Shown here: positions 12,579 to 24,559 of the stretch, piece by piece
Layout of the letters: each line of letters starts with the position of its first letter
Position numbering within the stretch: the first letter of the stretch is position 1
DNA from: Granulicella mallensis MP5ACTX8
GTDB lineage: Bacteria > Acidobacteriota > Terriglobia > Terriglobales > Acidobacteriaceae
Direction: 5' to 3'
Assembly (NCBI RefSeq): GCF_000178955.2
Contig: NC_016631.1
Location: 2,046,001 to 2,110,000 of the forward strand
DNA: 64,000 bases
Position numbers and translations under genes: made by a program
The notes under the pieces: model-generated
The model's input: the letters and a program-made list of their open reading frames with translations, nothing else
The model's database searches: none
What the model was told of the DNA's origin: nothing

Positions 12579-12745
12579 AGATGTCTCGATTCTGACGAGC
12601 GGATCATTGCACCCAACCTAAAGTGGGGTATATATCTGGCATCCACTAGGTTGTAGATTTTGGTGGTGGAGCAGCCAATCAACTGGGACAGTTCCTCCAC
12701 TTTCCAGGCCCCTTTCTTTGCTGCAATGGTTTCTACCAGCGTCAT
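12569..12745 (-). CDS. Excisionase-like HTH protein, C-terminally truncated
   Basis: A 58-residue reading frame. It reads MTLVETIAAKKGAWKVEEL, then a turn (IGCSTTKIYNLV) and IPHFRLGAMIR, closely matching the upstream gene at 12745-12990 and the gene at 15664-15861. Homology stops at the IR of the wing: the paralogues continue FDP..(V)SRWV, while this one ends after a short unrelated tail, so it is truncated or decayed. Its ATG overlaps the TAA of the preceding gene (TAATG), indicating coupled translation. It also overlaps the AlpA-like gene by 10 bases. Confidence 0.6.
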   Translation of the reverse strand: MTLVETIAAKKGAWKVEELSQLIGCSTTKIYNLVDARYIPHFRLGAMIRSSESRHLWM

Positions 12746-12990
12746 TACGTTGTCTTCATCCCCCAGGGTTTGCGCGATGCACCCCGCTTGCCCTCAAGGA
12801 CGCCCTTGTTTTGAACCCATCTCGACACGGCTACCGGATCGAACCGGATTGCCCCTCCTACCCTGAAATAGGGAATTCCTCCATTTCTCACGAGATCGTA
12901 GAGTGATTGGGGAGTGCAGTTGAACAACTCGGCAAGTTCGTTTACCTTCCAGGCGTTCTGTTTGGTCGCAAGAGTTTCTACCAAGTCCAT
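12745..12990 (-). CDS. Excisionase-like HTH DNA-binding protein
   Basis: MerR-superfamily excisionase-type protein of 81 residues. It contains the helix-turn-helix WKVNELAELFNCTPQSLYDLVRNG, the wing strand IPYFRVGGAIRFDPVAVSRWV, and a basic tail (KRGASRKPWGMK). The frame runs to ATG 13023, but the paralogues in this island begin at the equivalent of MDLVETL, and AGGAGA lies upstream of that codon, so ATG 12990 is preferred. It is first in a run of three overlapping small DNA-binding genes (TAATG junction). Such proteins bend attachment-site DNA during excision or regulate island genes; here no complete integrase is adjacent. Confidence 0.72.
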   Translation of the reverse strand: MDLVETLATKQNAWKVNELAELFNCTPQSLYDLVRNGGIPYFRVGGAIRFDPVAVSRWVQNKGVLEGKRGASRKPWGMKTT

Positions 12991-13191
12991 TGTGATGTTT
13001 TCTCCTGTTCCGAGATTCGCCATCCTTATCGATAGCGCCTGGTTCTTAAAACAACCGCGAATAGGCTAATTGTCGCTCAAATTTGTTCAAGATGCCACGG
13101 TGTAAACTATAGATAACAAAGGCGCTGAGCTATACAGGGCAGAAAACATTGCTATCTCAGATGGCGCGATCATTGAGAGAACGATTGCATG

Positions 13192-14439: not shown

Positions 14440-15027
14440 ATGAAAATCACTGCCTTAGCTGTGTTCGCAGTTGTCCTGTGTGCGCCTTTGAGCCTTTTCG
14501 CGCAACCCGTACTACCTGACTGTCCGGTAGCTTCGGGAGCCTATTACCTGCAAGGCACGACATGGGTTGGTATGGACCCTAGCCATTCCACCGGGTTTAA
14601 GACAACAAATGTTGCTGGCGCAGCCTTCAGTTATGGAGCAGCAAAGGCGCGCGTGAAAGCTCAATTCCGCGAGGCCAGATCACCATATCAACTGCCGGAC
14701 AGTTCATTCGCAATGTGCCTGGTTGGCACTGTGGACACCGGACGAGACATCACTCTAGCTCGCTTTCAGGAAGAAAAGGATCGACGAGAACTTTCGATGG
14801 CAAGCTATCGGATGTGGACGGGTATCAATGCCCAATTGGACCCAAAGGTTCTGATCCCAATTACCGTGGAAAAGAAGGGCGAGAAGATCTATCTCGTCAC
14901 GAGCAAAGAGCCGTTGCCGTTGGGGGAATTCATTCTTTTTACGATAATTCCCGACGTAGCTGCTATGGCAAAGGCTAATCAGGCCAGCTCACTTGGCGGC
15001 TATGACTTCGGGAACCACGCCAAGTAG
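14440..15027 (+). CDS. Secreted protein of unknown function
   Basis: Exported protein of about 195 residues. The signal peptide is clear (MKITALAVFAVVLCAPLSLFA before QPVLPD). The mature part begins with a Cys-containing segment (DCPVASGAYYLQGTTWVGMD), includes a strand-rich middle and ends with a segment carrying PITVEKKGEKIYLVTSKEPLPLGEFIL. This resembles small acidobacterial exported proteins with an N-terminal domain of unknown function. I cannot name a function. GTG 14416 and ATG 14422 also open the frame; 14440 gives the cleanest signal peptide. A short motif just upstream (14377-14421) recurs twice near 26 kb. Confidence 0.6.
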   Translation: MKITALAVFAVVLCAPLSLFAQPVLPDCPVASGAYYLQGTTWVGMDPSHSTGFKTTNVAGAAFSYGAAKARVKAQFREARSPYQLPDSSFAMCLVGTVDTGRDITLARFQEEKDRRELSMASYRMWTGINAQLDPKVLIPITVEKKGEKIYLVTSKEPLPLGEFILFTIIPDVAAMAKANQASSLGGYDFGNHAK

Positions 15028-15159
15028 CTCTACCTTCCTCGTGGATCTCTAGCGTCGTGCTGCGCTCACTGCTCATGCTCCGTGCGAGATTTACTCTGAT
15101 GAGTGTGGACGACAAGGAGATAATGAAGACATGGCCGAACAGCACACAGCGCCGATTGA

Positions 15160-15639
15160 GCACCCGGCGGGAACGTAGACTTCCGTTCCAAGGTAATCAA
15201 AGTCCGAGAGATGATCGACGACGAGTATGAGTACGATGTGAGGATCAAAGACAGGGCAGAGAGGTCTGTACCGCTCGCTGACGATCTGGCCGTCACCCTG
15301 AAAGCGTGGAAGGAAAAGAGACCAGGCACCAAACTCGTCCTCGGAACTAAGAATGACACCCCGAACAAGAAGTGGTTGCAAATGCTGAAACGGTCTGCAC
15401 GAAGTGCCGATTTGAACTGCGGCCGCTGCCCAGCCTGTAGAAAGAACGATGAATGCAACCGGTGGACGATCCACAAGTTCAGGGCGACGTACACCACGAT
15501 GTCGCTGAGGAACGGAGTGGACGCCAGGACCGTGATGTCCTATACCGGTCACGAGGACTTGGCTACGGTTCTGCGTTATCTCGCTCCGGCCGAAGACGAA
15601 CCCATGCAGCAAAAGGTCAGCGCCATCTCTTGGATGTAG
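15160..15639 (+). pseudogene. Truncated tyrosine recombinase (integrase) C-terminus
   Basis: C-terminal half of a phage-type tyrosine recombinase. Visible are the strand phrase VDFRSKVIKVRE, then HKFRAT (HxxR), GHEDLATVLRY with the GH box and the nucleophile Tyr in RYLAP. The N-terminal DNA-binding domain and the first catalytic Arg region are absent: an in-frame TGA lies directly upstream at 15157-15159 and the previous gene ends at 15027. The remaining part has a Cys cluster (CGRCPACRKNDEC) between the middle and the HxxR box, which occurs in some acidobacterial integrases. The first ATG is 15211. It is a relic of the enzyme that probably brought the island in. Confidence 0.75.
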
Positions 15640-16338: not shown

Positions 16339-16729
16339 AGTTGATTCTGTCGTGAGCTTTCATTCGCTCCTTCTGGCGGGGCTGACAAGAAAGCATATCG
16401 TATGCCGACGTCGTTCACCGCGCGGACGTGATGATGAAGGACACCAGCCACATAGTGACCCCGCAGGTGCACGGTAGAACCGTGGAGCACGTTGAAGCTT
16501 AATCCGATTCTGTTTCTGCAGGCGTGTCATCAAGTCACGCGAAGCCTACTTGTGGATCACATGTGCTCCGGTGCTCTTGTAGACCTGCCTCAAAACTAGC
16601 CCGACTAGCCCGCAAGAGCGCTGCCATCATAGCCCAGGGTGAAACCATGGGTAACAATGTCCCACGAGAAGGTGAGCCCTGAAAGGGCGATCTATCTGAC
16701 GGGGGAACCCACAAGGTACCTAAAATCAT

Positions 16730-17284: not shown

Positions 17285-20200
17285 ATGATGCAGTCCGTTT
17301 GCACAGAACAATCGCGCCCCTCATTCCGTATGCGTGCGCGAAAATCCGCTTTTACCTATAAGGCGGTTTTAATCGTCGTTTGGGCACTTTGCGGCTCGTT
17401 CTCCGGCGCAAAATCTAATTTCCTGCAGGCACAATTGACGGCGGTAGAGGAAAAGGGTCTGCCATCAGACAGCACCTTTCAGGGGGGCGATATTGATCTT
17501 GTCAATCTACATAATGGGAACTTGCATATCTCAATTCCCCTTGCAAGCCTAAAGCAGCGTGGTGGCACAACCTTGAGCTGGAGCTTTGTGTATGACACGC
17601 AAGGCTGGATTAAGCAATGGTATGAAAATCCTGGATGTGGAATATCTGTTCCCGGTGCCCAGGTTGTTACTGCTGGGGTTATAGCCCAACCTTTAGGCGT
17701 TGCTCCTCCAGGAGGAGGTGGTGGTAATCCCGTCAATTGCAATCCTCCGGGGCAATACCTTGTGGCCGCAACTAAAACTAGTTCGACCGGTTGGAGATTA
17801 TCAAACCCTTTCAATTGGAGTGTCGAGTATCTTCGACCTACTACATCTGCACCTTGTCTTACGGACGCTAATTTGATGTACATAGCTGTAACAAATTGGC
17901 GGATAGTAGACCCCCAGGGAACATCCCACGCACTTCCACTTCGAGAAGAACTTGATGGAAATGGTACGTGTCTCGGTCAGACCCTGAAGGGGCCGGCGTT
18001 GGATGGCTCTGGTATTGTCTACGATGCCCAAGCGAATACGGTTTATCTCAAGGATGGAACACAAATTATGCCTGGCGCGCAGGGAGAAATTCGTGACAGG
18101 AACGGTAATATTATGAGCCTTCAAGGGGACACGGATACTCTCAACCGTTCCCCAGTAACTACGACAAGTGGCCCAGGAGTTACTTACACGACGCCATTGG
18201 GAAATGCGATACAGGGATATCAATATACAAATTACACAGTCTATGATTCGTCCGGGAATCCACAAGTATATAAGGTGGATTATCAGGCAATGGACTTCGC
18301 TTCAAATATGTGTACAGAGGCTACAATGTCCGGGACGCAGTCGCAGTCCTATCCCTGTGAAGACACAGTAATACCAATAATTGAACCATGGCACCTCACG
18401 CTCCCGAGCGGTAAGGCTTATGTCTTCACGTTTAATAATGGGTCTATGGGAGAACTGGCTAAAGTCGATTTGCCTACAGGAGGCTCGATTTCGTACAGCT
18501 ACAGTGGCCTCTATCAAACCCAGCCTAATACGATCCCAGGCCAACAGCCTAACTGGGTTGGTGGTCCTGGTGTAACGAGCAGAACTGTAACCGTGAATGG
18601 CGCCGCGAATAAATGGACATACAAAATTAATCCGGATGAGCAGGCAACAGTTACCGATCCTCTGGGCAATACTCAGATTCATACTTATGGTCTTGTCCAA
18701 CCGAGCAATGCTCCTGCCAACTACAATACATATTTGGGGGCCTACTATGATACCAGTGCTACATATTCGGATTCATCCGGGAATTTGCTAAAGACAGTTG
18801 CAAATGACTATACGGCAGAATACGATCCGATAAATAATGCTATTGCTAATGTGCGAGTGATTCGAACTACGACAACGCTTGCCGGTAACCAGGTAACGAA
18901 AAAAGAAACAGATTACGAAACCTTTCAATATAACTGTTTAGATGCAATTTCGTGTCCTGGAACGGCTACTCGTCTCAACCCTACAGAAACCAGGGAGTAC
19001 GATTACGGGACTGGTACTCCTGGAGGACTCTTACGCCGAACAGACTACACGTATCTGCATACCGGAAACCAGAGCTATATAAACCTTAATATCGTGAGCG
19101 ACCCCGCCGTAGTCTCCATCTATGACGGATCAGGGACAATGGCCGCGCAAACGACCTATGAGTATGACAACTATTCTCATTTGAATCAGCCCATGGTTGC
19201 CAGCGCGGCTGTCCAACATGACACTGGCTATGGTACGTCCTTCACAACGCGCGGCAACGTAACCGCTATAGAAAAATGGCGAAATACAGATGGCGCACTT
19301 CTTACTTCCACCAACCAATTTGATGACGCTGGTAATCTTCTTTCGACAATCGATCCGCTCAAGCATCAGACAAGTTTCGACTACACCGACTCATGGTCGA
19401 ATAGTATCTGTGCTCCATCAGGAGCCGGAAAAGAATACCTTACGAAAACTACCAATGCGGCGGGGCAGGTAACCACCTCAAAGTATGATTCCTGCACGGG
19501 TGAAATAGCGTCAACAACCGATTCTAATCTTCAAACAACGAGTTGGACTTATGACGTACTCAATAGACCGAAACAGATCAGTTATCCGGATGGTGGCCAG
19601 ACAAGTTATTGTTATAGCGATATCGGGACTGGTTCCTGCCCAAGTTCCAGCGTCTTGAGCATCACGGGAACTACGAAGCTCACTAGCGCCCTTAACTTTA
19701 CCAGCACCTCTATTTTCGACGGATTAGGTCGTACCATACAGACTCAGTTAACCTCTGATCCAAGTGGTGTGACGTACTCAGATACGACCTACGATGGGGT
19801 AGGTCATGTGGCCTCGGTTTCTAATCCTTACCGTGGCGGTCAATCTGGTGTGGTGGCAAAATCACAGCCCACAACTACCTATACCTACGATGGATTGGGT
19901 CAAAAAATTGTACAGACGAATCAGGACGGGACCACAGAGCAATGGTGCTACGACGGTATATCGTCCGTGCAGAGTAATTGCAGTTCAAACAAAAGCTCAA
20001 TAAAGACCGGTTCTTGGGTTGATGTAACTGATCCGAATGGTCATCATACCCAGCAGGTTAGCGACGTCTTAGGACGATTAACAGCAGTGATGGAACCGGA
20101 TCCCGCTTCGGGTGCACTCAGTCTTGAGACTGATTACCAATATGACACGCTGAGCAATCTAACGCGAGTGGATCAATGGGGTGGGCCGGTTAATTCATCT

Positions 20201-23200
20201 GGAGTGCGAACACGAAGTTTCAATTATGATTCGCTGTCTCTATTGCATTGCGCCTCTAACCCGGAAAACAGCCAGAATTCCTGCCCGGCGAAGGCAACAG
20301 CCACTCTTCCGTCAGGCGTTACAAGTTATGTCTATGACGCCAGCAGCAATCTGAAGAACAAGACGGACGCACGCGGAATCACCACGACCTACAGCTACGA
20401 TGCGCTGAACCGATTGATATCGAAAACGTATTCGGACGGGACCGCCGGCGCTTCCTTCGGCTACGACGAAACCGGCGATTTTGGAGCCGCCGGCTGTGGG
20501 GGAACTGGTTTTGTGCAGTGCAACACGATTGGCCGGCTATCATCGGCTACCGTGGCTAACGTAACCCAATCTATATACAGTTACGATGCCATGGGCCGGA
20601 TGACCGTGAAGTCCACCTGTGTAGCCAGCCTGTGTGGCTCTGACCGGATCGATCAATTCTTTACCTACGATCTTGCAGGAAATCTTACCAGCTACGACCA
20701 TGGCACTGATGTGGCGCGAAATGCCTACTATGGAGGTCACGGACTGAGTTATGACAGCGCTGGCCGGCTGAATCTTGTCACTGGATACCAGCAGCCAGCG
20801 AGCCCGTCTAATCTCTTCAAGGCTACTTCCTATGGTCCGGTGGGACTATTAGAGTCGAGCCTGGGGAACGGTCTGAATGAAACCCGCTCGTACGACAACC
20901 GAATGCGGCAGACGAGCTATAACGCTCTCAATGCAGCCCCGACATCCTCCCCATCGACTTTGACTGGGTACATGGACGATTTTCAGAACAATGACGTCGA
21001 ACGATTTCCTGGTGTGACAATCAATGGAAGCGCGCTGCCGCAAAACGGCCTGCTCCAAGTGGGGGGATGGGCAGCTACAGCGCAGAGCTGCCCGGTGGCT
21101 GCCGTTGAGATCGACATCGACCAGACCGCCATTGGCTATGCTTCATTAGATAAAGTCCGCTCCGATGTGCAAAGTCTTGTTTATAACAACGACGGGCATC
21201 ATGCGGACTGCGGGTACAACTTCGTCGGTAGCATTGGGGGAGCCTCCGTAGGTCCGCATTCGGTAAATGTCTATGCTCTGGATGCCTCCGGAAATCGCCA
21301 ACTCCTGGTGGATGGGCCTGGCAACAACACAATCACCGTCAGCGCTGATCCTCCACCTACCGGGACCATAGACGGCACGGTTTCGCTCCCCGGCCAAATT
21401 ACCTCGGGCGGACTTATGACTCTTAGTGGATGGGCGATCGACAGCCAGATGCATGCCCCAGTGGGGGCTGTGAAGATCTTGATCGATGGGATTCCTATCG
21501 GGTATGCCACCCTAGGAGCTCCTCGTCCTGATGTGGCGGCTGCCTATGGAGACCAGCGTTATGCCAATAGCGGTTGGGTCTTTACGGGAAGCATTGGAAA
21601 CCTCTCCGTGGGCCAACACACTGCCACAGCCATCATCTACGACAGTGGCGGGCAGAGCACTCCAGTAACTCAGGCCACCGTCTACAACAGCCAGACGCAA
21701 ACCTGGGGTCTGGCTCCAGTTATTATTAGCGTCGTTGCAGACAAGACATTCGTGTCCAGTTGGTTCGATTTGGTGCAGAACGCCTCCGATCAAACCTCGG
21801 TCGTGCCACTCAATGGGAGCATCTTCGCTGGAGGTTGGGTTGGAGAGACCCAGAACCAGACCGCCTGTGCGAAAAATATTAGCAGGGTCGATGTCCTGGT
21901 GGATGGCTACTATGTGGGACAGGCTCAGCTCGGGGGCGCTCGGCCGGATGTGGTGGCCGCCTTTCAGAACCCAAGTTGCCTGAACAGCGGTTGGTCGTTC
22001 ACGGGCACCGTAAGCAATATCGATCCCGGGGTCCACATCTTTACCGCAAGGGCATACGATGAGACCGGCGGGTCGATTATGCTTGCCAACAGCGGAACGA
22101 TGCAGATCAATGCGCAACTGTCTCCCGCATCAGTAACGAATCCTCTGCCATCGCAATACGCTTGGTCGCTGGGGTATGAACCCAACAGCAATGTGGGATA
22201 CGCCTTTGACTCGGTGAATGGCAACTATGCCTATCTCTATGACAACCTCAACCGTCTTGTAGCTGCGGGATCGAGCACCACAGGGTTGCAGTGGAGCTAT
22301 GACTCGTTCGGGAACCGGACCTCGCAGGTGGTAACTGCTGGTTCGGGAACCAGCAGTTACGAAACGTTCAATGCGAACAACCAGCCGAACGATGTGGCTT
22401 TCGATGCGGCTGGAAATGCTCTGGGCACTGGTGTGGTTCCACTGCAATACGACGCCGAGAACAGGCTGATCAACGCCAACGGTATCCGCTATATTTACGA
22501 TGCCGAGGGGCAGCGTGTAGCCAAATACAGTGGCAACACGCTCACGAACGTTTACCTGTACGACCAAGCGGGTCACGTGGTCACCGAACTGGATGGCTCC
22601 TTCAATGTCATCCGCCGGGAAGTCTATGCTGGATCACGACATCTCGGGACCTATGACCAGAGTGGCAATCTGACTTACGTGCTGTCAGATTGGCTTGGTA
22701 CAGAACGCGCAAGAGCCAACAATACCGGGACACTCTGCGAGACCACTACCAGTCAACCTTTCGGGGATAACCAGCAAACTAGCGGGACCTGCTTTCCGTC
22801 TCCAACGTTCTTTACCGGCAAGGAACGGGATGCAGAATCAGGGCTGGATTACTTCGGGGCCAGGTATTTCGGCAGCAGCATGGGGCGGTGGATGTCGCCA
22901 GACTGGGCATCCGACCCGCAGTCAGTTCCGTATGCAACCTATACAAACCCACAATCGCTGAACCTGTATTCCTATGTCGAAAACAATCCAATCACCCAAC
23001 GCGATGCGGATGGACATGCGGCTAACGAAAATATCGGTTCAGCTGAGCCACCTAAAGCGGAGGACGGTATCGTCATACTGATAGATGATTCAGGACCGGA
23101 GACCCCCCTTCAAGTCTCTAGAACAGCTGCCCAGGATGCTGCCGAAAGGGCTTATGATGTTCAGGGTACCGAGGCATTCGACGTCTTCGCTGCTCCTGCT

Positions 23201-23626
23201 GGGGCCCAACAGCAGACCTGTAAGTGTGAGCAAACTATACAGGCAAACCAGGAAGTGGTAGATAGTGTTAGTGACTACCTGAAAAAAAGTGCGGAAATAA
23301 CCAATACTGCGATTATGACGGCGGGGGCGGCTGTTATCGGGGCTGTTGCAGCAACCGCTGGTCCTAAGGCCGATACTGCTCCTGGGATAACAGCAGGAGG
23401 ACAGGCGACGGATCAGTATGGGAATAAAATAGGACCAAGTGGCAAGGCGCAAATTGACCAAGTGGACCACACAGGGAAAAAGTCAGCGAGGGATGCGGCA
23501 AGACGAGGCGGCAAAGGTAAACCTGTCCAACATCCTAGCCCGACAAAAGGCAAACCTCACTTCCATCCTACGGATTCGGAAGGCGAAAAGTTACCTACTA
23601 GCGTGCACCATAACTATCCAAACTAA
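17285..23626 (+). CDS. Giant RHS/YD-repeat protein with variable toxin-like C-terminus
   Basis: Exported RHS protein of 2113 residues. An N-terminal hydrophobic segment (YKAVLIVVWALCGSFSGA) is a probable signal peptide. There follows a region with LVNLHNGNLHISIPL, then many YD repeats (e.g. YDALNRLISKTYSDG, YDAMGRMTV). At about residues 1235-1615 three Ig-like repeats of roughly 100 residues interrupt them (each with GWA or GWV, a DG..(I/V)G turn and R.DV). YD repeats resume to the RHS core, LDYFGARYFGSSMGRW from residue 1854, ending DADGH at 1911. The last 202 residues are unique: a hydrophobic stretch (TNTAIMTAGAAVIGAVAATAG), then a basic, His-rich end (HFHPTDSEG, VHHNYP) suggesting a nuclease-like toxin domain. 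AGGAG precedes the ATG. A small probable immunity gene follows 15 bases later. Confidence 0.92.
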   Translation: MMQSVCTEQSRPSFRMRARKSAFTYKAVLIVVWALCGSFSGAKSNFLQAQLTAVEEKGLPSDSTFQGGDIDLVNLHNGNLHISIPLASLKQRGGTTLSWSFVYDTQGWIKQWYENPGCGISVPGAQVVTAGVIAQPLGVAPPGGGGGNPVNCNPPGQYLVAATKTSSTGWRLSNPFNWSVEYLRPTTSAPCLTDANLMYIAVTNWRIVDPQGTSHALPLREELDGNGTCLGQTLKGPALDGSGIVYDAQANTVYLKDGTQIMPGAQGEIRDRNGNIMSLQGDTDTLNRSPVTTTSGPGVTYTTPLGNAIQGYQYTNYTVYDSSGNPQVYKVDYQAMDFASNMCTEATMSGTQSQSYPCEDTVIPIIEPWHLTLPSGKAYVFTFNNGSMGELAKVDLPTGGSISYSYSGLYQTQPNTIPGQQPNWVGGPGVTSRTVTVNGAANKWTYKINPDEQATVTDPLGNTQIHTYGLVQPSNAPANYNTYLGAYYDTSATYSDSSGNLLKTVANDYTAEYDPINNAIANVRVIRTTTTLAGNQVTKKETDYETFQYNCLDAISCPGTATRLNPTETREYDYGTGTPGGLLRRTDYTYLHTGNQSYINLNIVSDPAVVSIYDGSGTMAAQTTYEYDNYSHLNQPMVASAAVQHDTGYGTSFTTRGNVTAIEKWRNTDGALLTSTNQFDDAGNLLSTIDPLKHQTSFDYTDSWSNSICAPSGAGKEYLTKTTNAAGQVTTSKYDSCTGEIASTTDSNLQTTSWTYDVLNRPKQISYPDGGQTSYCYSDIGTGSCPSSSVLSITGTTKLTSALNFTSTSIFDGLGRTIQTQLTSDPSGVTYSDTTYDGVGHVASVSNPYRGGQSGVVAKSQPTTTYTYDGLGQKIVQTNQDGTTEQWCYDGISSVQSNCSSNKSSIKTGSWVDVTDPNGHHTQQVSDVLGRLTAVMEPDPASGALSLETDYQYDTLSNLTRVDQWGGPVNSSGVRTRSFNYDSLSLLHCASNPENSQNSCPAKATATLPSGVTSYVYDASSNLKNKTDARGITTTYSYDALNRLISKTYSDGTAGASFGYDETGDFGAAGCGGTGFVQCNTIGRLSSATVANVTQSIYSYDAMGRMTVKSTCVASLCGSDRIDQFFTYDLAGNLTSYDHGTDVARNAYYGGHGLSYDSAGRLNLVTGYQQPASPSNLFKATSYGPVGLLESSLGNGLNETRSYDNRMRQTSYNALNAAPTSSPSTLTGYMDDFQNNDVERFPGVTINGSALPQNGLLQVGGWAATAQSCPVAAVEIDIDQTAIGYASLDKVRSDVQSLVYNNDGHHADCGYNFVGSIGGASVGPHSVNVYALDASGNRQLLVDGPGNNTITVSADPPPTGTIDGTVSLPGQITSGGLMTLSGWAIDSQMHAPVGAVKILIDGIPIGYATLGAPRPDVAAAYGDQRYANSGWVFTGSIGNLSVGQHTATAIIYDSGGQSTPVTQATVYNSQTQTWGLAPVIISVVADKTFVSSWFDLVQNASDQTSVVPLNGSIFAGGWVGETQNQTACAKNISRVDVLVDGYYVGQAQLGGARPDVVAAFQNPSCLNSGWSFTGTVSNIDPGVHIFTARAYDETGGSIMLANSGTMQINAQLSPASVTNPLPSQYAWSLGYEPNSNVGYAFDSVNGNYAYLYDNLNRLVAAGSSTTGLQWSYDSFGNRTSQVVTAGSGTSSYETFNANNQPNDVAFDAAGNALGTGVVPLQYDAENRLINANGIRYIYDAEGQRVAKYSGNTLTNVYLYDQAGHVVTELDGSFNVIRREVYAGSRHLGTYDQSGNLTYVLSDWLGTERARANNTGTLCETTTSQPFGDNQQTSGTCFPSPTFFTGKERDAESGLDYFGARYFGSSMGRWMSPDWASDPQSVPYATYTNPQSLNLYSYVENNPITQRDADGHAANENIGSAEPPKAEDGIVILIDDSGPETPLQVSRTAAQDAAERAYDVQGTEAFDVFAAPAGAQQQTCKCEQTIQANQEVVDSVSDYLKKSAEITNTAIMTAGAAVIGAVAATAGPKADTAPGITAGGQATDQYGNKIGPSGKAQIDQVDHTGKKSARDAARRGGKGKPVQHPSPTKGKPHFHPTDSEGEKLPTSVHHNYPN

Positions 23627-23641
23627 AGATCGAGGCAAACT

Positions 23642-23974
23642 ATGCAGCAGAGCGCAGAAAAGAGTATTTGGATCGGAATGGCTGCGGTGAAACCACGTCC
23701 GGGGTCAGAAACCTTAAGCGGTAGCGTGAGTGGAGCCTTCGTAAATGTTCTTACATGGGCATCAGACTCGTTTGAGTTCAGAGAAAAAGCGAAAGAGCTA
23801 ATGGACTATCTTGCTTTGGACTTGATCGGAGTGGAGGATGAAGAACCACTTAGCGAGCGACAGAAGACAGGAGATATGGAACCCGATATAACGCAAATAG
23901 CACTCGAAATGAAGGACAATCTGCGGTCAATTAGGTATACGACCTTCCATACTTGGACAGAAACGAACGCCTGA
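23642..23974 (+). CDS. Putative immunity protein for the RHS toxin tip
   Basis: Acidic protein of 110 residues, starting 15 bases after the RHS stop. It has no signal peptide and would stay in the cytoplasm, where an immunity protein acts. Visible segments are IGMAAVKPRPGSETLSGSVSGAFVNVLTWA, a helix FREKAKELMDYLALDLIGVED and an acidic end region (MEPDITQIALEMKDNL). No known immunity family is recognised. The call rests on position directly behind an RHS variable tip, small size, acidity and an A+T-rich composition matching that tip. GAGG lies upstream of the ATG. Confidence 0.55.
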   Translation: MQQSAEKSIWIGMAAVKPRPGSETLSGSVSGAFVNVLTWASDSFEFREKAKELMDYLALDLIGVEDEEPLSERQKTGDMEPDITQIALEMKDNLRSIRYTTFHTWTETNA

Positions 23975-24122
23975 CGTTCTTTATGGAGAACGGACCTTCT
24001 CAACAGAGATGATAACTAGGCCGGGTGGTTCATATGTGCCCGGATTATTGAGTGCCACATCCATGACAGGGGGCGAGTAATGGCGGGTGGCCTAGATCTG
24101 AATTAGGAAGCAAAGAGGGTGC

Positions 24123-24147
24123 CCCACATCTCGCTTTGAGATGTGGG
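24123..24147. repeat. REP-like hairpin before the RAYT relic
   Basis: CCCACATCTC-GCTTT-GAGATGTGGG, a perfect 10-bp stem ending 7 bases before the RAYT start codon. REP palindromes directly flanking the transposase gene are typical of RAYT systems. Confidence 0.7.
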
Positions 24148-24154
24148 CTCTAGG

Positions 24155-24559
24155 ATGAGTGCCATGCCGAAGGACCTTGTTCGCTATCAACAGACAGGAA
24201 ACCTGCATCTTGTGACCTTCTCTTGTTATCGGAGGCTTCCGTATCTCGGTACTCCTGCGATCCGCGAGCTCTTCGAAAGGTCTTTGGAAAAGATGCGTAT
24301 GAAGTACGACTTCTATATCAATGCCTATGTCGTAATGCCAGAGCACGTGCATCTGTTGATCAACGAACCCAAACGGGCGATCCTGGTAAAGACCCTTCAG
24401 GCGCTAAAGATATCCGCGCAGGCGGGGGCATATATCCGAAACCCCTTTGGGTGCCGTCATGAATGGGGCGCCGGCGTTCACATGATCGCAACGTTCGCTG
24501 CACTCATGTTTATGTTCGTAGGTGCCGTAAGGACGTCTCGGGCACATCTGACTGCCTGA
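24155..24559 (+). pseudogene. REP-associated tyrosine transposase (RAYT), truncated
   Basis: Y1/HUH-family transposase of the IS200-like RAYT group. The N-terminal half is good: RYQQTGNLHLVTFSCYRRLPYL, FERSLEKMRMKYDFYINAYVVMPEHVHLLI (the HUH motif is HVH) and AILVKTLQALKISA. After about residue 96 homology is lost: the sequence runs into NPFGCRHEWG and a hydrophobic tail, and the catalytic Tyr helix is missing. The nucleotide sequence at that point resembles a REP-like repeat seen at 16308-16338, so the 3' end was probably replaced by such a repeat. ATG 24155 is taken as the start; ATG 24164 is also possible. Confidence 0.78.

What the first reader, a model, noticed from the sequence alone, without database searches (positions are those of the whole stretch)
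17285..23974. Exported RHS giant with A+T-rich tip and unrecognised immunity gene
Seen: a 2113-residue RHS protein whose core (about 20.3-23.0 kb) is visibly G+C-richer than both the N-terminal third and the last 600 bases. The tip after DADGH (residue 1911) is unique, basic and His-rich, and is followed within 15 bases by a small acidic gene. Known: E. coli rhs genes have a G+C-rich core with an A+T-rich, exchangeable toxic tip and a downstream immunity gene. Inference: this is a polymorphic toxin-immunity pair whose tip, ending HFHPTDSEG...VHHNYP, could be a nuclease not yet characterised in acidobacteria.
Basis: partly seen in the sequence, partly recalled or inferred. Interest (0 to 1): 0.75.

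Follow-up and report, generated by a model that had tools for sequence, protein, structure and literature searches.

The report
Exchangeable RHS toxin tip plus immunity
This soil bacterium carries a giant exported RHS protein whose tail looks like a swappable weapon against competing bacteria, followed by its antidote gene; the arrangement is well known, but this tail and this antidote belong to families that are in none of the protein-family libraries searched.

Summary
The 2113-residue RHS gene, the break at DADGH (residue 1911) and the 110-residue gene 15 bases downstream are all there. The base-composition claim is only half right: the core has average G+C for this window, the N-terminal third is the poorest part, and the tip is only mildly poor. 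The tip is basic only in its last 76 residues. A paralogue in the same genome and an RHS gene in a sibling species share the core at about 84-87% DNA identity but end in unrelated tips with unrelated next genes. Fourteen RHS tips in the genus show no similarity to one another. The window's tip family (GPSGKP...PHFHPTD..G.K.P.S.HHNYP) is rare: five more copies in Acidobacteria, one decayed, and Leptospira plasmids. All six acidobacterial copies are followed at once by the same small-gene family. In the sibling species an 87%-identical immunity gene stands alone behind a 9-codon scrap of the tip. Neither family matches Pfam or NCBIfam. Toxicity, nuclease activity and binding are untested. Verdict: a new tip/immunity family of a known kind.

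The parts
17285..23626 (+). RHS/YD-repeat giant, 2113 aa, with a hydrophobic export-signal-like N terminus (about residues 26-42)
   Evidence: RHS_repeat E 2.8e-24; YD_repeat_2x and Rhs_assc_core; signal peptide read by eye
17285..20323 (+). N-terminal third (residues 1-1013), lowest G+C of the locus and divergent: 11-35% identical to the paralogue, 33-62% to the sibling gene
20324..23017 (+). shared core (residues 1014-1911), 83.6% DNA identity to the paralogue at 5.39 Mb and 87% to sibling genome G136 over about 20324-22908; ends at DADGH
23018..23395 (+). acidic linker part of the exchangeable tip (residues 1912-2037); contains most of a weak barnase-like stretch
23396..23623 (+). exchangeable tip domain (last 76 residues, basic, 6 His), family GPSGKP-x-PHFHPTD-x-HHNYP
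23642..23974 (+). putative immunity gene, 110 aa, acidic; same family behind every acidobacterial copy of the tip
24082..24559 (+). hairpin element followed by a truncated REP-associated tyrosine transposase (Y1_Tnp); decayed copies also lie 3' of the two other long RHS loci of this genome and of the RHS array in G136

Best explanation
This is an antibacterial polymorphic toxin with its immunity gene. The RHS shell is exported (Sec-type signal, inferred), encloses its C-terminal tip and probably cuts itself at the conserved C-terminal core motif ending in DADGH (inferred from the RHS family). The last 76 or so residues are the toxic part, most likely a small metal-independent RNase that uses its conserved Lys and His residues (inferred, about 50%). 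The 110-residue acidic protein made from the next gene binds and blocks it in the producer and its kin (inferred). Tip and immunity gene move as one cassette by recombination next to the conserved core. When the toxin is lost the antidote can stay behind as a shield. Shown here: the exchange of tips, the pairing, and the orphaned antidote. Not shown: toxicity, enzymatic activity, neutralisation, delivery.
For: (1) Exchange inside one genome: the paralogue at G000:5385461-5389435 shares the core (83.6% DNA) but ends in an unrelated DUF2380-type tip (E 5.7e-12) with a different 224-aa gene overlapping its stop. (2) Exchange between species: G136 has the core at 87% DNA and three successive tip/next-gene cassettes, the last two behind core scraps, none related to the window's tip. 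Of 14 RHS tips compared in the genus none matches another. (3) Pairing: the six acidobacterial tip copies (window, G091, KBS 96, G021, G579, and a decayed one in G009) sit on different RHS cores or on none, and all are followed directly, by overlap or within about 15 bases, by the same small-gene family. (4) In G091 tip plus immunity form a cassette behind another RHS tip and its own next gene. (5) Orphan antidote: in G136 identity to the window runs over 23592-23974 (87%), that is, the last codons of the tip (ASTHHNYPG) plus the whole immunity gene, with a CdiI_N immunity gene upstream (E 1e-23). G009 has a tip broken by a stop but an open immunity gene. (6) The tip family also ends an RHS gene on a Leptospira plasmid, with a different next gene.
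Against: No catalytic motif or fold could be assigned: the AlphaFold tip model has pLDDT 74 from only 3 sequences, and Foldseek has no match below E 0.5. The barnase-like phmmer hit (E 0.003) covers mostly linker, does not reach barnase's C-terminal catalytic part, and is absent with the family profile. The complex model is uninformative (pLDDT 53). About half of the immunity-family members found are not beside any tip, so the family may have another basic role.
Confidence: 0.85

Rival explanations
1. Same toxin-immunity logic, but the tip is a metal-dependent nuclease of the HNH/His-Me kind, or a non-nuclease enzyme, using the HFH...HH histidines as metal ligands.
For: His residues at family positions 46, 55 and 71 are invariant in the five-sequence alignment, with a further His in HFH and HHNYP of most members. 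Other tips in this genus are HNH- or DUF2380-like.
Against: No HNH or other nuclease family matches even at E 10. The model shows one helix and short strands without any fold match. One copy has HFR instead of HFH.
Confidence: 0.3
2. The downstream gene is not an immunity protein but a member of a small housekeeping family that happens to lie next to the tip.
For: Family members stand alone inside metabolic operons: ilvB-ilvH in G050/G038, behind sucD in G110, between a fadB-like gene and a crotonase in G542, an ATP-grasp operon in G105. Tip-linked and solitary members are mixed in the tree.
Against: Six of six acidobacterial tips carry it as next gene on different cores, while only 10 of 150 genomes of the order have any copy found with the window's protein. 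The gene survives where the tip is broken (G009) or reduced to nine codons (G136).
Confidence: 0.1
3. The RHS gene is a decaying or purely structural wall/adhesion protein and its tail has no toxic function.
For: RHS/YD proteins can be structural; no secretion apparatus lies beside it; a shortened integrase and a transposase remnant lie nearby.
Against: The frame of 2113 codons is intact; the tip motif is conserved across Acidobacteria and Leptospira on unrelated cores; tips turn over faster than the core.
Confidence: 0.05

Closest known systems
RHS polymorphic toxins (E. coli/Salmonella/Serratia Rhs with exchangeable C-terminal toxin and RhsI immunity; Zhang et al. 2012, PMC3482391; PMC3967940; PMC10539506)
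   Same: RHS repeats, conserved core ending in a fixed motif, non-homologous tips on homologous cores, next-gene immunity, displaced tip cassettes behind core scraps, orphan immunity genes
   Different: No PAAR or other T6SS marker was matched on this protein; export looks Sec-type; tip and immunity families match no catalogued family; the core holds three internal repeats of the form IDG..IGYA.LG..RPDV...GW.FTGSIG; a REP-transposase remnant closes the arrays
[quoted passage not shown]
   Same: small basic C-terminal domain with conserved Lys/His and an acidic partner; a weak barnase-like stretch by single-sequence search
   Different: the profile gives no match, and the fold is not confirmed
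DUF2380/PF09533 tip of the paralogue at 5.39 Mb
   Same: same core, same position, also followed by a private next gene
   Different: unrelated tip sequence and unrelated partner

Membership tests
RHS polymorphic toxin | RHS/YD repeats and RHS-associated core domain | tested here: met
RHS polymorphic toxin | non-homologous tips on homologous cores | tested here: met
RHS polymorphic toxin | small immunity gene directly downstream that travels with its tip | tested here: met
RHS polymorphic toxin | displaced cassettes and orphan immunity genes in relatives | tested here: met
RHS polymorphic toxin | export route (PAAR/T6SS, Sec or TcB/TcC) | tested here: inconclusive
   N-terminal signal-like stretch by eye; no PAAR match; a T6SS sheath gene exists about 1.5 Mb away
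RHS polymorphic toxin | toxicity of the tip and neutralisation by the partner | not testable with these tools
   needs the bench
BECR-fold RNase | significant sequence or structural match to the fold | tested here: not met
   phmmer E 0.003 to barnase, mostly in the linker; none with the family profile; Foldseek best E 0.52, not a BECR protein
HNH/His-Me nuclease | HNH family profile match | tested here: not met
   no family at E 10
Any catalogued immunity family (Pfam Imm models, NCBIfam) | profile match of the 110-aa protein or its relatives | tested here: not met

The most novel reading that the evidence does not exclude
The tip is a new enzymatic toxin fold. Its antidote family has been captured many times as solitary genes inside metabolic operons, where they act as a standing shield against this toxin. 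The REP-transposase remnant that closes each RHS array provides the second recombination block that lets whole tip-immunity cassettes be exchanged.
Probability: 0.12. Interest if true: 0.6.

Novelty: new member of a known kind. Interest (0 to 1): 0.4.

Why it matters
It adds an uncatalogued toxin-tip family and an uncatalogued immunity family to the polymorphic toxins, and shows in a little-studied soil phylum the full set of signs of tip exchange: same core with different tips, displaced cassettes, and antidotes kept after the toxin is gone. It gives a small pair (76-90 and 110 residues) that can be tested directly. The solitary antidote relatives in metabolic operons raise the question whether antidotes are recruited from, or hidden among, housekeeping genes.

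Tried and rejected
Pfam, NCBIfam and PADLOC scans of tip and immunity protein, and of immunity relatives against Pfam and NCBIfam: nothing credible. The phmmer barnase hit was examined and not accepted. No tip relative was confirmed in viral contigs or annotated phages. A weak match in G466 was set aside: no RHS gene was seen in the stretch read, and its strand carries a glycoside-hydrolase-like frame. AlphaFold on the tip alone gave a middling model without a fold match. AlphaFold on an in-frame read-through of tip and immunity gene (TAA read as Gly), meant to test binding, gave no usable interface, and Foldseek on it found nothing. Only window and the search for related loci sequences were handed to the structure tool, as its rule says, so its alignments were shallow. 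The phylum-wide and family-wide profile searches found few copies, so the tip could not be given a deep alignment. An alignment made with a dummy row was discarded and redone.

Full report
What is there. The window lies at 2.046-2.110 Mb of a 6.24-Mb single-contig genome; relatives found by sequence are Acidobacteria. ORF 17285-23626 (+) encodes 2113 aa, and 23642-23974 (+) encodes 110 aa, 15 bases later. RHS_repeat and Rhs_assc_core match, the latter ending exactly at residue 1911, the H of DADGH. Base composition: N third 48.2%, core 55.4%, tip 52.3%, immunity gene 47.6%, window 56.9%; third-position G+C is 0.448, 0.612, 0.436 and 0.491. The core is therefore average rather than rich, and the N third is the odd part. 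The last 76 residues are basic with six His; the 126 before them are acidic.

Tip exchange. In the same genome a second RHS gene (5.39 Mb) shares residues 1001-1900 at 63-96% identity per 100-residue block but only 11-35% before and 20% or less after. Its DNA identity block is 20324-22902 of the window (83.6%). It ends in a DUF2380-type tip with a 224-aa next gene. In the sibling species G136 an RHS gene with the core at 87% DNA carries yet another tip and 110-aa gene, then two more tip/next-gene cassettes, each led by a scrap of core. In that genome the array lies between a symporter gene and a phosphoesterase gene; in the window's genome these two genes are about 145 bases apart without an RHS gene, with a small core fragment just beyond. 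So whole arrays come and go. Fourteen tips from the genus have no mutual BLASTP match at E 0.01.

The tip family. Relatives of the last 76 residues were found in G091 (54%), G021 (46%), KBS 96 (57%), a core-less copy in G579, a stop-broken copy in G009, and on Leptospira plasmids (43-44%). None was found in annotated phages or confirmed in viral contigs. Of 396 genomes drawn across the phylum only the window's own is a credible hit, so the family is rare. The motif is K-x-GPSGKP, an Ala-rich stretch predicted as a helix, then PV-x-H, G-x-PHFHPTD-x-x-G-x-K and HHNYP.

The partner. In all six acidobacterial cases the next gene is of one family, although the RHS cores differ or are missing. In G136 an 87%-identical copy stands alone behind the last nine codons of the lost tip; identity to the window starts inside the tip (23592) and stops at the immunity stop codon (23974), and a CdiI_N immunity gene lies just upstream. 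This orphan locus sits beside the same protease gene that in the window's genome flanks the third RHS gene, so antidotes collect at RHS sites. The Leptospira tip has a different next gene, with no credible similarity to the family.

Complication. The immunity family also has solitary members in metabolic operons. In a tree the tip-linked and solitary members are mixed, with at least two tip-linked lineages (most forks weak). Either antidotes were captured there, or the antidote was recruited from such a family. This is open.

Function. No library family and no confident fold: tip model pLDDT 74 and pTM 0.60, Foldseek best E 0.52. The joint model of tip and immunity is not usable for the interface (pLDDT 53); its immunity part is an alpha+beta protein at moderate confidence. 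A single-sequence barnase hit (E 0.003) is a lead only. I commit to a toxin-immunity pair at 0.85, and within that to a metal-independent RNase at about one half, because small basic Lys/His tips with acidic partners are often of that kind (established knowledge of polymorphic toxins, PMC3482391; inference for this case).

Recombination anatomy. A hairpin element and a truncated REP-associated tyrosine transposase follow the immunity gene (24082-24559). Decayed copies close the two other long RHS loci of the genome and the G136 array, and few copies lie elsewhere. Conserved core on one side and this remnant on the other could give two blocks for exchange of the cassette between them; that is inference. 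A full-text search for papers holding both terms found none.

Noticed in passing
window 24082-24559; G000:5383785-5384104, 784867-785014; L079 (reverse complement) 14883-15205: A hairpin plus truncated REP-associated tyrosine transposase closes three of three long RHS loci compared in this genome and the array in the sibling species; possibly a second recombination block.
   Followed up: partly
window 16578-16697: A repeat of about 90 bases, upstream of the RHS gene, with more than 40 partial copies across the genome, often as inverted pairs about 10-20 bases apart (a REP/BIME-like family).
   Followed up: no
window 15211-15639 and 12745-13023: A shortened phage-type integrase (PF00589) and an HTH_17 excisionase-like gene upstream of the RHS gene, suggesting the remains of a mobile island.
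   Followed up: no
window 17285-23626, residues about 1245-1590: Three internal repeats spaced about 120-140 residues in the RHS core (IDG..IGYA.LG..RPDV...GW.FTGSIG..SVG.H).
   Followed up: no
L031 1742-2044, L032, L018, L030, L107: Solitary relatives of the immunity gene inside metabolic operons (between ilvB and ilvH, behind sucD, beside a crotonase gene, in an ATP-grasp operon).
   Followed up: partly
L027 8410-8865: CdiI_N-type immunity gene standing alone beside the orphan immunity gene in the sibling species.
   Followed up: partly
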